In this document: in pieces, positions 27,908 to 63,929 of the stretch
How the letters are laid out: every line of letters starts with the position of its first letter
Numbering within the stretch: the stretch's first letter is position 1
DNA from: Apteryx mantelli
Lineage: Eukaryota; Chordata; Aves; Apterygiformes; Apterygidae
Direction: 5' to 3'
Assembly: GCF_036417845.1 (NCBI RefSeq)
Contig: NC_090013.1
Coordinates: 1,059,001 to 1,123,000, forward strand
DNA length: 64,000 nucleotides
The notes under the pieces: model-generated
The model's database searches: none
What the model saw: the letters and a program-made list of their open reading frames with translations, nothing else
Told to the model about the DNA's origin: nothing
Made by a program: the position numbers and the translations under genes

Positions 27908-30900
27908 TCAGGGCTGCCCCTCGCACACCCAGGCCTGGGGGCTGCTGCAGGGCCGGTCGCCCCAGGCGCCGTCCACCCCGGCCACGGCGCAGTTCTCCCG
28001 GCGCCCGCCATCGGGCTGACCCACCTGCCACCACCTGCCACCCGGACACACGGACATGGGTGAGCGCGGCGCCCTGGCCCCCTCCGCCGTTCCCGTCCCC
28101 CCCCCGGCGCCCCGCAGGGCCCTACCCGGCCTCCGGCGACACCGCGCTGCCGTTGGCCCCCGTCCACACGCCCTCCGCCGCCTCGTCCCGGATGCCGAGC
28201 CAGGAGGGGCCGTGCACCAGGGTCCGCACGTGCTCCTGCGGACGGCAACCCCAGCACCCCAGAATTTAGCTTTAGGTCGAGATTAGGGCCCCATGGGCGT
28301 TCGGGCACGCTTAGAGCTCTCTTAACCCTATATATTTAAGGTTAGAGCTCTGTGGGGCTTTGGACTTGCTTAGGGCTCGCTTAACCCTATATATTTAAGG
28401 TTAGAGCTCTGTGGGGCTTTGGGCTTGCTTAGGGCTTGCTTAACCCCATAAATTTAAGGTTAGGGCTCTATAGGGGTTTGGGCTTGCTTAGGGCTCGCTT
28501 AACCCCATAGATTTAGAGTTGGGGGTCCTGTGGGGGTTCAGGCTCACTTAGGGCTCGCTTAACCCTTTAGATTTAGAGCTTTAGGCTTAATTTAAGAAAT
28601 ATTGCCCCCGGGGCATGCGTTTGGGGCTAAAGACGGGGATGGGGTGGGCAGCAGCGACGCGTGGGTGAGGGCTATGGGGGGCTGAGGACAACCTGGGGTT
28701 AGGAGCAGGGTTTTTTGGGGGGGTTTCGCAGGAGGCTTCCAGCCTCATCCCCCAGCCGGGCTGAGTGTCCCCTTCCCGGACGCCTGGGCCCCCGGGCGCC
28801 GCTCACCTGCTCACGGGGGCTGTCGACCTCGAGGAGGTGGGCGCCCAGGGCCGAGCAGAGGCTCCGCGCGTCCTCCCAGGGCAGCGCCGTGGCCGAGGAG
28901 AAGTAGCAGGAGTCCTCGAAACGGCTCCAGCCCTTGGCGCAGGGCAGGCAGTCTGGCAAGCGGCACCCGGGGGGGCTTAAGTTAGGGCCCCGTGGGCGTT
29001 TGGGCTAGCTTAGGGCTTGCTTAACCCCATAGATGTAAGGATTAGGGCCCCATGGGGGTTTGGGCTCACTTAGGGCTCACTTAACCCCATAGATTTAAGG
29101 TTAGGGCTCCATAGGCATTTGGGCTACCTTAGGGCTCGCTTAACCCCATAGATGTAAGGATTAGGACCCTGTGGGGGTTTGGGCTAGTTTAGGGCTCACT
29201 TAACCCCATAGATTTAAGGTTAGGGCTCCATGGGGGTTCAGGCTCGCTTAGGGCTCGCTTACCCCATACATTTAAGGTTAGAGCCCCGTTGGGCGGTTTG
29301 GGATAGCTTAGGGCTCGCTTAACCCCATATATTTCAGGTTAGGGTTAGGTGGATTAGTTTAGGGCTACCTTAACGCCATCTATTTAGGGCTCAGGTTAGG
29401 TGAGCTAGCTTAGGGCTAGCTTAACCCCATATATTTTGGGTTAGGGCTGGGTGGGCTAGCTTAGGGCTACCTTAACCCCATATATTTACAGCTAGGATTA
29501 AGTGGGCTAGCTTAGGGCTAGCTTAACCCCATCTATTTAGGACTCGGGCTAGCTTAGGGCTAGCTTAACCCATTTTATTTAAGAATTAGGGCCCCGTTGG
29601 GGTTTGGGACTATCTTAACGTTACCGTAACCCCACCTATTTAAGATTAGGGCCTCGTGGGGGTCGAGGCTAGCTTAGGGCTCGCTTAACCCCCTATATTT
29701 AACGCCCCCCCCCCCCCGACGCACAGGAGTGGGCGCAGATGTCCTGGCCGGTGTCGCGGTCCACCCAGCGGCTCCACTCGCGGTCGCCGCTGTAGAGCGT
29801 CACCACGCGCTGCTTGCTGTGGCCGTAGTTGAAATGCAGCTCGTGGCCGGCCAGGACGAGCAGGCCGTCGGCGCGACACTCCCAGCGCTGCAGCGCGCCG
29901 GGCGCCCCGCAGGGCCGCAGCTCCACGGGGCTCAGCTCGGCCGCCCGGGCCGCCGCCACGCACGGCCCCCCGGGCCCCCCGCTCCGCAGCCGCCCGCCCG
30001 CCGCCCACTGGAACCGCTGCTCCGGGGCGCCGGGCCGGCACGCCGTCACCGTCAGCTGCTGCCCGCGAGCTTCGGCGCATTTGGCGTGCGCTTTGTTGTA
30101 CAGCAGGAAGGAGCAGGAGGCTGCGGGGTGAGCGGAGGCGTTGGCGGGCGGGGGAGATTTGGGGGGCGGATTTGGGAGTGGGGGGGGGGTCGCGCTCCAG
30201 CGCTGCGCCCCGAGATGCGGATACTCACCACCGGTCGGCTCTTGCACCGCCACAGCCGTCTCGTTTGTACCTGCAGGGTGACAACATGCTGTCACCTTAA
30301 CTCTGCCCGCAGCACCATCACCTTAACTCTGCCCACAGCACTGTCACCTTAACTCTGCCCACAGCTCCATCATCTTTACTCTGCCCGCAACACTGTCACT
30401 GTAACTGCCTACAACACCGTCACCTTAACTCTTCCCACAGCTCCATCACCTTAACTCTGCCCACAATACTGTCACCTTAACCCTGCCCACAGCTCCATCA
30501 CCTTAACTCTGCCCACAATACTGTCACCTTAACCCTGCCCACAGCTCCATCACCTTAACTCTGCCCGCAACACTATCACCTTAACTCTGCCCACGAGGGC
30601 AGCAACAGCCCCACAAGCACCCAGAGGCCCCTCTGATACTCACTCGGCTGCAGGTACAAGGCGAGGAGGAGCATGTTGAGGACCACCGAGACGCCCAGGG
30701 CCACGGTGATGGCCAGCACCCACCTGGACCCAGGGCTGCCGGATGGGAGAGCCTGACGCCCCCAGCTGGAAGCGCCGTGGTGTTGGGCCCTGCCGGAGCC
30801 GCAGCTCTTGGCTAGGGTGGGTGGCTCAGTGTCCCGCGGGAGGCTCGGCGTGGTGCACGGAGGGTCCAAGGGCTCGTAGGGGTTCTCCTCGGTGAGGCAC

Positions 30901-31341
30901 AGGGTGCTGCAGGCTGGGGAGGGGGGCAGGGGGACGGCAGGGGTGGGGGGTGTCCCCACCTTGGTGACGTTGTCCACCCTGGGGACACCCTCGGGGACCA
31001 GGGGTGGAGATGGGGGATCACCTCTTGGTGCCACCATCCGCCCTGGGGACACCCCCTTAGTGACACTGTCCGCCCTGGGGACACCCTCGGGGACCAGGGA
31101 TGGAGATGGGGGATCACCTCTTGGTGCCACCGTCCACCCTGGGGACACCCTTGTGGACACCAGGGATGCAGATGTCCCCCCCCGCTGCAGTCCCGGAGAC
31201 CTGCATTGGGGCTGTGGCACCCACCAGGGTCACCCCCACCCCAGCCAGCACCCCGGGGTGCCCCGTACCTTCCTGCGAGCCGGGAACGGGCACCAGCGGT
31301 GGCCCTTGCCCGCGCGGGCCCATCGCCACGTTGCCGTACAT
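27908..31341 (-). CDS. Type II membrane lectin: cysteine-rich (R-type) domain plus C-type lectin domain
   Basis: Seven coding exons: 31341-31269, 30913-30644, 30270-30229, 30120-29725, 28952-28807, 28235-28126, 28034-27908; phases 1,1,1,1,0,2 agree at every junction, giving 387 aa. The start MYGNVAMGPRG is the only ATG in frame. The cytoplasmic tail (1-88) carries NPYEPL (35-40, a YxxL sorting or signalling motif). The membrane segment is about 89-113. Residues about 129-260 form a cysteine-rich beta-trefoil domain like the mannose-receptor N-terminus (LLYNKAHAKC, RWECRADGLL, FNYGHSKQR, EWSRW). Residues about 261-387 form a long-form CTLD on three exons (KGWSRFEDSCYF, PSWLGIRDE, GQPDGGRRENCAV, WVCEGQP). 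QPD suggests galactose-type calcium-dependent binding, but the usual WND is WGD. I know of no standard gene with this architecture. CD23, CLEC4G and CD209 are the nearby human 19p13.2 type II lectins. Predicted role: cell-surface glycan receptor. Confidence 0.82.
28260..28640. repeat. 59-60-bp TTAGGG-bearing array, part A (lectin intron 5)
   Basis: Tandem units of about 59-60 bp contain GCTTAGGGCTCGCTTAACCC and TATATTTAAGGTTAGAGCTC. They are AT-richer than all other arrays here. The array stops before the exon at 28807 and resumes on its other side. Confidence 0.88.
28970..29705. repeat. 59-60-bp TTAGGG-bearing array, part B (lectin intron 4)
   Basis: The same unit as at 28260-28640 continues upstream of the first CTLD exon, becoming more diverged (GGGCTAGCTTAGGGCTAGCT) toward the cysteine-rich exon at 29725. 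Confidence 0.88.
30290..30598. repeat. 26-bp array in lectin intron 2
   Basis: Units close to CACCTTAACTCTGCCCACAG plus CTCCAT or CACTGT alternate in pairs between the membrane exon and the small stalk exon. Confidence 0.82.
30925..31165. repeat. Tandem duplication in lectin intron 1
   Basis: Two to three copies of an approximately 100-bp unit containing TGGTGCCACCGTCCACCCTG and GACACCCTCGGGGACCAGGG. Confidence 0.75.
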
Positions 31342-63659: not shown

Positions 63660-63800
63660 CGTGTCCTGGGCGCTGGGCCACCCATGGCGCGGTGCAGCCC
63701 CGTCACCCCACCTGTGGGTGCTGGGCCACCCACGGCGCGGTGCAGCCCCCTCACCCCACCCGTGGGTGCTGGGCCACCCACGGCACGGTGCCACCCCACC
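63660..63800. repeat. About 48-bp repeat before the NPYEPL exon
   Basis: Two to three copies of GGTGCTGGGCCACCCACGGC plus GCGGTGCAGCCCCCTCACCC. They are in frame with the following NPYEPL sequence, so an in-frame N-terminal extension from an ATG at 63684 is possible. Confidence 0.75.
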
Positions 63801-63802
63801 AG

Positions 63803-63929
63803 CAACCTCCAGGAGAGGGAGCACAACCCTTACGAGCCGCTGGAGAAGGCACCCCGGGGTGGGGGCGGGGGCCACCCAGGGCTCCCTGCTGGAGAGGCGG
63901 GGCCGGGAGAAGCCACGCCCCCACGTTAG
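63803..63929 (+). CDS. Partial N-terminal exon of a second NPYEPL receptor-like gene
   Basis: The plus strand reads NLQEREHNPYEPLEKAPRG. The lectin gene at 27.9-31.3 kb reads TLCLTEENPYEPLDPP at the start of its tail exon, so the two can be aligned without gaps around a shared NPYEPL. The exon may begin at an acceptor (CCACCAG at 63796-63802 or CCTCCAG at 63806-63812) or continue an open frame from an ATG at 63684. A possible donor follows APRG (GGTGGGGGC near 63857); otherwise the frame stops at 63927-63929. No membrane or lectin exon lies inside the window, so identity as a receptor is inferred from the motif alone. Confidence 0.4.

What the first reader, a model, noticed from the sequence alone, without database searches (positions are those of the whole stretch)
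27908..31341. Unusual receptor: mannose-receptor-type cysteine-rich domain fused to one CTLD in a type II membrane protein
Seven in-phase exons give a 387-aa protein with a YxxL tail, a membrane anchor, a CysR beta-trefoil domain and a single CTLD. As far as I know, CysR domains occur at the N-terminus of large type I receptors (MRC1, MRC2, LY75, PLA2R1), whereas CTLDs on three exons with a type II anchor are the CD23/CD209/ASGR design. This gene combines both. The CysR keeps the Trp-rich EWSRW site that in the mannose receptor stacks on sulfated GalNAc, and the CTLD keeps a galactose-type QPD, so a compact two-site glycan receptor is plausible.
Basis: partly seen in the sequence, partly recalled or inferred. 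Interest (0 to 1): 0.88.

Follow-up and report, generated by a model that had tools for sequence, protein, structure and literature searches.

The report
Hybrid lectin receptor gene, mannose-receptor type
A bird-like vertebrate genome carries an intact-looking gene that joins a sugar-binding module of the mannose-receptor kind to a single C-type lectin domain on a type II membrane anchor; if it is expressed, it is an unusual combination of two well-known receptor designs.

Summary
Seven minus-strand exons (27908-31341) have GT-AG introns, phases 1,1,1,1,0,2, and give 387 aa. Codon-position-3 GC is 0.92, against 0.52 in the intron beside the CysR exon. Pfam finds CysR/ricin and Lectin_C. The CysR is closest to MRC1 (mouse CysR, E 4.4e-23); the CTLD leans to CD209-type receptors. 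In the same genome, all seven CysR exons found on C2, C6 and C28 have an FN2 exon 0.5-2.3 kb downstream, while none of 28 listed FN2 matches lies on this contig. Four related CTLD genes were read, two on the same contig 72-80 kb away. A CysR exon (phase 1-1) sits where relative L042 has coiled-coil-like neck exons (by eye). The glycan claims hold only in part: Trp117 is kept but N102 is His; QPD is present but WND is WGD, a site more like tetranectin's. Best reading: a type II endocytic receptor with the CysR as main ligand head. No transcript or orthologue could be tested, nor whether it is annotated elsewhere. New variant of a known kind; interest 0.6.

The parts
31269..31341 (-). exon 1: start codon, cytoplasmic tail aa 1-25 (YGNV)
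   Evidence: GT donor, phase 0-1; stop upstream in frame
30644..30913 (-). exon 2: rest of tail (ENPYEPLD, YxxL motif) and membrane anchor aa 90-112
   Evidence: AG/GT borders, phase 1-1; hydropathy, flanking charges
30229..30270 (-). exon 3: 14-aa stalk with one N-glycosylation sequon (NET, aa 117)
   Evidence: AG/GT borders, phase 1-1
29725..30120 (-). exon 4: CysR (ricin-type beta-trefoil by homology), aa 129-261, with WSRW
   Evidence: phase 1-1; PF24562 and PF00652 over cut-off; MRC1 CysR E 4.4e-23; GC3 0.95
28807..28952 (-). exon 5: CTLD part 1
   Evidence: phase 1-0; PF00059
28126..28235 (-). exon 6: CTLD part 2 (WLGI...EGVW)
   Evidence: phase 0-2
27908..28034 (-). exon 7: CTLD part 3 (QPD, WGD) and stop codon
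   Evidence: phase 2, stop at 27908-27910

Best explanation
It is a protein-coding gene of the CD209-type C-type lectin cluster in which a CysR exon of MRC1 type sits where a neck would be, by shuffling of a phase 1-1 exon into a phase-1 intron (shown: anatomy, phases, kinship of both halves; inferred: the shuffling event, its source copy and its age). It makes a type II plasma-membrane receptor. The outermost CTLD follows the CysR directly, and two extra cysteines (Cys131 before and Cys262 after the CysR core) may pair to clamp the trefoil ends (inferred). The CysR, with its kept Trp117 and a more basic rim (His/Lys/Arg at MRC1 columns 102/104/106), most likely binds sulfated or otherwise acidic glycans without Ca2+ (inferred). 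The CTLD, lacking the WND Asn and with a tetranectin-like loop, is probably a protein-binding or weak-glycan domain (inferred). The NPYEPL tail (YxxL type) takes bound ligand into the cell and could be phosphorylated for signalling (inferred from motif).
For: Intact seven-exon frame, in-phase borders. GC3 0.92 against intron 0.52. Pfam for both domains. CysR to MRC1 85 bits against 25 for MRC2 and 18 for PLA2R. CTLD against PDB chains with one CTLD: CLEC4F 73, CD209L 70, CLEC4D 70 bits; MRC1 58 with one stretch; best printed domain of MRC2 50, PLA2R 27, LY75 20. Whole-genome CTLD kin: C337 gene L042 (44-45% identity) and two genes at C36:1.005-1.015 Mb (35-37%); window and these cluster rows part from the tetranectin/L015 pair with 100/100 support in a tree of 7. 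L042 has CD209L as best one-CTLD PDB kin. All 7 CysR exons on C2, C6 and C28 have FN2 0.5-2.3 kb downstream; 0 of 28 listed FN2 matches are on C36. MRC1L-like CysR exon L002 reads as phase 1-1 too. Trp117 stacking: PMC4635314 passage. Trp117 kept in 3 of 10 other rows (L057, mouse, human).
Against: No transcript. No orthologue could be searched, so purifying selection is untested. The CysR branch is long (2.51), its place unresolved, its composition biased; inside the CTLD cluster the window row is unresolved as well. An NKG2D chain (264 aa, two stretches, 80 bits) and multi-CTLD receptors head the CTLD list, and the FcRY chain (76 bits) was not seen domain by domain. The CysR binding lobe is not significantly better conserved than the rest (13/26 against 32/105 identical with L057, Fisher p 0.07). 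N102 is not kept. The last acceptor (gtccgggtggcag) has a poor pyrimidine tract. No polyadenylation-type hexamer was found in 1.5 kb downstream. The PF24562 genome search did not list this exon, so it misses divergent CysRs. The AF2 model of the CysR failed (pLDDT 38), so fold and Cys131-Cys262 pairing are untested.
Confidence: 0.6

Rival explanations
1. Two-site glycan receptor: CysR for sulfated GalNAc and CTLD for galactose/GalNAc with Ca2+.
For: WSRW and QPD are present; four of five Ca2+-site letters (Q352, D354, E359, D372) remain (alignment; the Ca2+ ligand pattern is recalled).
Against: WND is WGD; QPD is followed by GG with no aromatic; the loop looks like that of the tetranectin row L013; N102 becomes His (PMC7948739). 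The nearest relative L042 keeps EPN and WND.
Confidence: 0.15
2. The CysR exon is skipped or belongs to no mature product; the gene makes an ordinary type II CTLD receptor, or both isoforms. Skipping keeps the frame because the exon is phase 1-1.
For: Phase 1-1 symmetry.
Against: Open 396-nt frame with GC3 0.95 and the six CysR cysteines, between the stalk and CTLD exons on the same strand.
Confidence: 0.12
3. A decaying gene or pseudogene: long CysR branch, altered CTLD sugar site.
For: Branch 2.51, WGD, weak last acceptor, no polyadenylation-type hexamer found.
Against: No stop or frameshift in 387 codons, six GT-AG introns, strong GC3 contrast, cysteine pattern kept.
Confidence: 0.1
4. [quoted passage not shown]
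For: CysR is MRC1-like.
Against: CTLD leans to the CD209-type cluster, no FN2 and no further CTLD seen, a tail and anchor before the CysR; the array of MRC1-like genes is on another contig. A tree with this genome's own mannose-receptor CTLDs was not built.
Confidence: 0.04

Closest known systems
MRC1 / CD206 CysR domain (and MRC1L-A-like copy L057 in this genome)
   Same: Six cysteines, FNYG, WSRW with Trp117; single exon, phase 1-1 in L002/L057; 34% identity to L057
   Different: N102 His, Q104 Lys, K106 Arg; no FN2, not at the N-terminus of a type I receptor, only one CTLD
CD209 / DC-SIGN-type group II receptors (L040, L042 in this genome)
   Same: CTLD on three exons with phases 1-0-2 (read by eye), CTLD identity 35-45%; type II anchor in the known family (recalled)
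   Different: CysR in place of a coiled-coil neck; WGD in place of WND; QPD in place of EPN; no C-terminal extra Cys (L040 has one, L042 none)
Tetranectin (CLEC3B; L013 in this genome)
   Same: QPDGG...ENC loop and W-x-D in place of WND
   Different: 29% identity, one-exon CTLD, separate in the tree with 100/100 support; soluble (recalled)
CD23 / FCER2, CLEC4G (recalled genes of the same human region)
   Same: Type II, single CTLD, extra Cys before the CTLD (recalled)
   Different: No CysR; compared from recall only
ASGR1 / CLEC10A galactose-type CTLDs
   Same: QPD letters
   Different: No Trp after QPD, no Gly-rich loop, no WND (family features recalled)

Membership tests
Mannose receptor family (CTLD group VI) | CysR at the N-terminus | tested here: not met
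   CysR present but behind an 89-aa tail, anchor and stalk
Mannose receptor family (CTLD group VI) | FN2 after CysR | tested here: not met
   0 of 28 listed FN2 matches on contig C36; 7 of 7 CysR exons on C2/C6/C28 have one; no FN2 pattern at 26-34 kb
Mannose receptor family (CTLD group VI) | 8-10 CTLDs | tested here: not met
   One CTLD; no other in the window
Mannose receptor family (CTLD group VI) | Type I, signal peptide | tested here: inconclusive
   No hydrophobic N-terminus (maximum 0.53) and charges fit type II, but no signal-peptide program and no experiment
MRC1-type CysR domain | Sequence kinship, six cysteines | tested here: met
   E 4.4e-23, PF24562 over cut-off, alignment
MRC1-type CysR domain | Sulfate-glycan site (Trp117, N102) | tested here: inconclusive
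   Trp kept, N102 is His (PMC4635314 and PMC7948739 passages)
Group II type II CTLD receptors (CD209 type) | Type II topology | tested here: met
   One hydrophobic stretch and flanking charges, by sequence only
Group II type II CTLD receptors (CD209 type) | CTLD kinship and three-exon CTLD | tested here: met
Group II type II CTLD receptors (CD209 type) | Coiled-coil neck | tested here: not met
   Only 16 aa between anchor and CysR exon; no coiled-coil program was run
Galactose-type CTLD (ASGR/MGL) | QPD + aromatic + Gly-rich loop + WND | tested here: not met
   QPDGGRRENC...WGD; family features recalled

The most novel reading that the evidence does not exclude
Exon shuffling made a new receptor class in this lineage: a CD209-type gene swapped its coiled-coil neck for an MRC1-type CysR, held by a new Cys131-Cys262 bond, turning a multimeric mannose lectin into a compact receptor for sulfated or acidic ligands that is conserved and expressed on phagocytes or endothelium.
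Probability: 0.3. Interest if true: 0.75.

Novelty: new variant of a known kind. Interest (0 to 1): 0.6.

Why it matters
In the papers seen, CysR domains belong to large type I receptors of one family (PMC4229073 passages). A CysR on a small type II receptor would show that this sulfate-glycan module can be moved by exon shuffling, give a minimal receptor in which to test CysR function without eight CTLDs, and point to an immune or clearance receptor that I do not recall from mammals.

Tried and rejected
AlphaFold2 of the CysR exon alone (131 aa, single sequence) gave pLDDT 38 and was not used; no fold search was run. The Liu 2000 structure paper is not held, so sulfate-contact residues rest on passages of PMC4635314 and PMC7948739 and, for columns 104 and 106, on recall. 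Eight paper searches for this architecture, site or locus showed no CysR + single CTLD type II protein in the titles and abstract openings listed; four lists were cut (20 of 59, 15 of 233, 10 of 15, 10 of 62). Beyond listings I saw of PMC4229073 the abstract, part 1 of the Results and passages, and passages of PMC4635314, PMC514892 and PMC7948739. The library lacks most subscription journals and no bird or reptile protein set was on hand, so absence from print is not shown.

Rejected: a truncated MRC1 gene; chance ORFs (E-values, GC3). The 30 kb at C1:182.24-182.27 Mb around a further CysR-like exon were scanned for CTLD and FN2 patterns: one match, read as chance; a coding scan there was uninformative. 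The conservation excess of the CysR binding lobe was not significant (p 0.07, 0.06 and 0.09 against L057, mouse and human).

Full report
OBSERVATION. Reading the minus strand of 27908-31341 gives seven exons with GT-AG introns, phases 1,1,1,1,0,2 and a 387-aa frame, exactly as reported. The first ATG is parted from the next in-frame stop upstream by 32 codons. GC by codon position is 0.70/0.59/0.92 over the CDS and 0.73/0.58/0.95 in the CysR exon, while the intron between CysR and CTLD, mostly tandem repeats, has GC 0.52. Such a contrast is what a coding exon in a GC-rich vertebrate gene shows. One hydrophobic stretch (aa 90-112) with charges +2 before and -2 after fits a type II protein. No polyadenylation-type hexamer was found in 1.5 kb downstream.

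DOMAINS. Pfam: Lectin_C 60.2 bits (cut-off 22.6), Ricin_B_lectin 29.5 (29), CysR_MRC2_N 28.2 (27). Against solved structures the CysR exon matches the mouse MRC1 CysR (1fwu, 1dqg) at 85 bits, human MRC1 at 76, MRC2 at 25, PLA2R at 18. The CTLD matches 224 distinct sequences, 60 shown. Multi-CTLD receptors (LY75, PLA2R, MRC2, FcRY) and a two-stretch NKG2D chain (80 bits) lead by summed score; chains with one CTLD follow: CLEC4F 73, CD209L 70, CLEC4D 70 bits. MRC1 has 58 with one stretch; the best printed single domains are MRC2 50, PLA2R 27, LY75 20; FcRY (76) was not seen domain by domain. The CTLD thus leans to group II, with a moderate margin.

THE HOST GENOME. The window is C36:1059001-1123000 of a 1.504-Gb genome in 408 contigs. 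The window CysR finds itself and four exons at C2:147.20-147.41 Mb (5 matches at E<=0.001, 14 candidates scored), which by number, arrangement and kinship look like the avian MRC1L array of five genes, one of them without CysR, described for chicken (PMC4229073, Results part 1). The Pfam CysR model gives 9 matches, 8 over cut-off: the four on C2, two on C6, one on C28, one on C1; a weak one on C9. It did not list the window exon, which scores just over its cut-off, so divergent CysRs can be missed. FN2 gives 28 matches from 80 candidates: each of the seven CysR exons on C2, C6 and C28 has one 0.5-2.3 kb downstream (one of these, on C2, with a stop inside), and none lies on C36 or near the C1 exon. 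The window CysR is thus outside the mannose-receptor gene plan.

CTLD KIN. The CTLD search gives 49 matches at E<=10. After the gene itself come a single-exon CTLD on C2 (45.3 bits), C337:3039 (45.1), C10 (39.5), C36:1013774 (39.2), C337:4556 (38.0) and C36:1005740 (36.6). The C2 one (L013) is tetranectin (249 bits to 1tn3) and the C10 one (L015) looks like its relative; both are 29% identical to the window CTLD. Spliced by hand, the CTLDs on C337 are 44-45% and 40% identical and those on C36, 72-80 kb away, 35% and 37%. In a tree of these 7 rows, tetranectin and L015 part from the window and the four cluster rows with 100/100 support, but order inside the cluster is unresolved and branches are long. 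This genome's mannose-receptor CTLDs were not in that tree. L042 has CD209L as best one-CTLD kin (115 bits); for L040 SRCL/collectin placenta 1 (121) and CLEC4E (117) score slightly higher than CD209 (113). L042, the closest, has EPN and WND and, upstream, an exon-like stretch that reads as coiled coil (LDEAMAAARTQQQQLQQDLASLRDSL) with phase-1 borders (by eye); no CysR match was found on C337. The simplest history is a CD209-type gene in which a phase 1-1 CysR exon now sits where a neck would be. That the L002 CysR exon also reads as phase 1-1 fits exon shuffling. The tree of 11 CysR rows puts the window row among MRC1 rows but unresolved, with a branch of 2.51 and odd composition: neither date nor source copy can be given.

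MECHANISM. The Trp that stacks on 4-SO4-GalNAc (Trp117; PMC4635314 passage) is kept in the window and in 3 of the 10 other rows (L057, mouse and human MRC1), lost in the other three MRC1L rows and in the MRC2, C6 and C1 rows. N102, named as ligand-coordinating and used to explain why DEC-205 is unlikely to coordinate sulfated ligands (PMC7948739 passage), is His here; columns 104 and 106 are Lys and Arg (their contact role is recalled). Sulfated or acidic ligands remain plausible; identical specificity does not follow. In the CTLD, Q352, D354, E359 and D372 remain of the Ca2+-site pattern, the WND Asn is Gly371, and QPD is followed by GG (ligand pattern recalled). The same QPDGG, ENC and W-x-D letters stand in the tetranectin row L013; tetranectin is recalled as a protein binder. 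A galactose-type lectin activity is therefore doubtful. The ectodomain has 14 cysteines: six CysR, six CTLD and two extra, Cys131 and Cys262, at the two ends of the CysR. In L040 and L043 an extra Cys before the CTLD goes with one at the C-terminus; L041 has only the C-terminal one, L042 neither; the window gene has no C-terminal one. Since the ends of a beta-trefoil lie close together (recalled), a Cys131-Cys262 bond is a testable guess. The tail has YGNV and ENPYEPLD, the second a YxxL-type uptake motif; roles are inferred.

SURROUNDINGS. By Pfam: SYDE C2 and RhoGAP (20.8-23.1 kb), patatin and cNMP-binding of a PNPLA6-type gene (39.4-42.7 kb), an ion channel domain (50.2 kb), P450 (57-58 kb); under cut-off, an NTR tail (0.55 kb, E 0.00032) and a TPP enzyme (19.2 kb, E 0.049). 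Names C3, ILVBL, MCOLN1, CYP4F, PGLYRP2, RASAL3 and a TNF ligand (no Pfam match) are by eye. In man such genes lie on 19p13, where FCER2, CLEC4G and CD209 lie near PNPLA6 (recalled). This fits a CD209-cluster origin.

VERDICT. The architecture is real in the sequence and unusual. Whether it is expressed, conserved, or already annotated in bird or reptile genomes could not be tested. I file it as a group II-type receptor with a foreign CysR. [quoted passage not shown] the type I plan is also against it by sequence, though not proven.

Noticed in passing
window 63798-63848 (+): A short open stretch TSNLQEREHNPYEPLEK repeats the NPYEPL tail motif of this gene, upstream of a PGLYRP2-like gene (by eye); it could be a tail exon of another gene or chance (tblastn E 2.3).
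   Followed up: partly
L061, genome C1:182249814-182250146 (+): A further CysR-like exon (PF24562, 41 bits) with no listed FN2 match near it and no convincing CTLD pattern in the 30 kb read: perhaps a second CysR outside the mannose-receptor gene plan.
   Followed up: partly
genome C2:147364181-147364306: An FN2 match in the MRC1L-like array with no CysR match beside it: a fifth gene that lacks CysR, or a missed CysR.
   Followed up: no
L058, L059, L060 (C2): Three of the four CysR exons found in the MRC1L-like array have lost Trp117; only L057 keeps WSRW.
   Followed up: partly
genome C337:3039-21772: A 29.8-kb contig with at least two CTLD genes of this cluster type, perhaps an unplaced piece of the same cluster; one CTLD (L043) has QPD and WAD.
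   Followed up: partly
window 28309-28565 and 28977-29539: Tandem repeats of about 51-60 bp (and multiples) fill much of the introns on both sides of exon 5.
   Followed up: no
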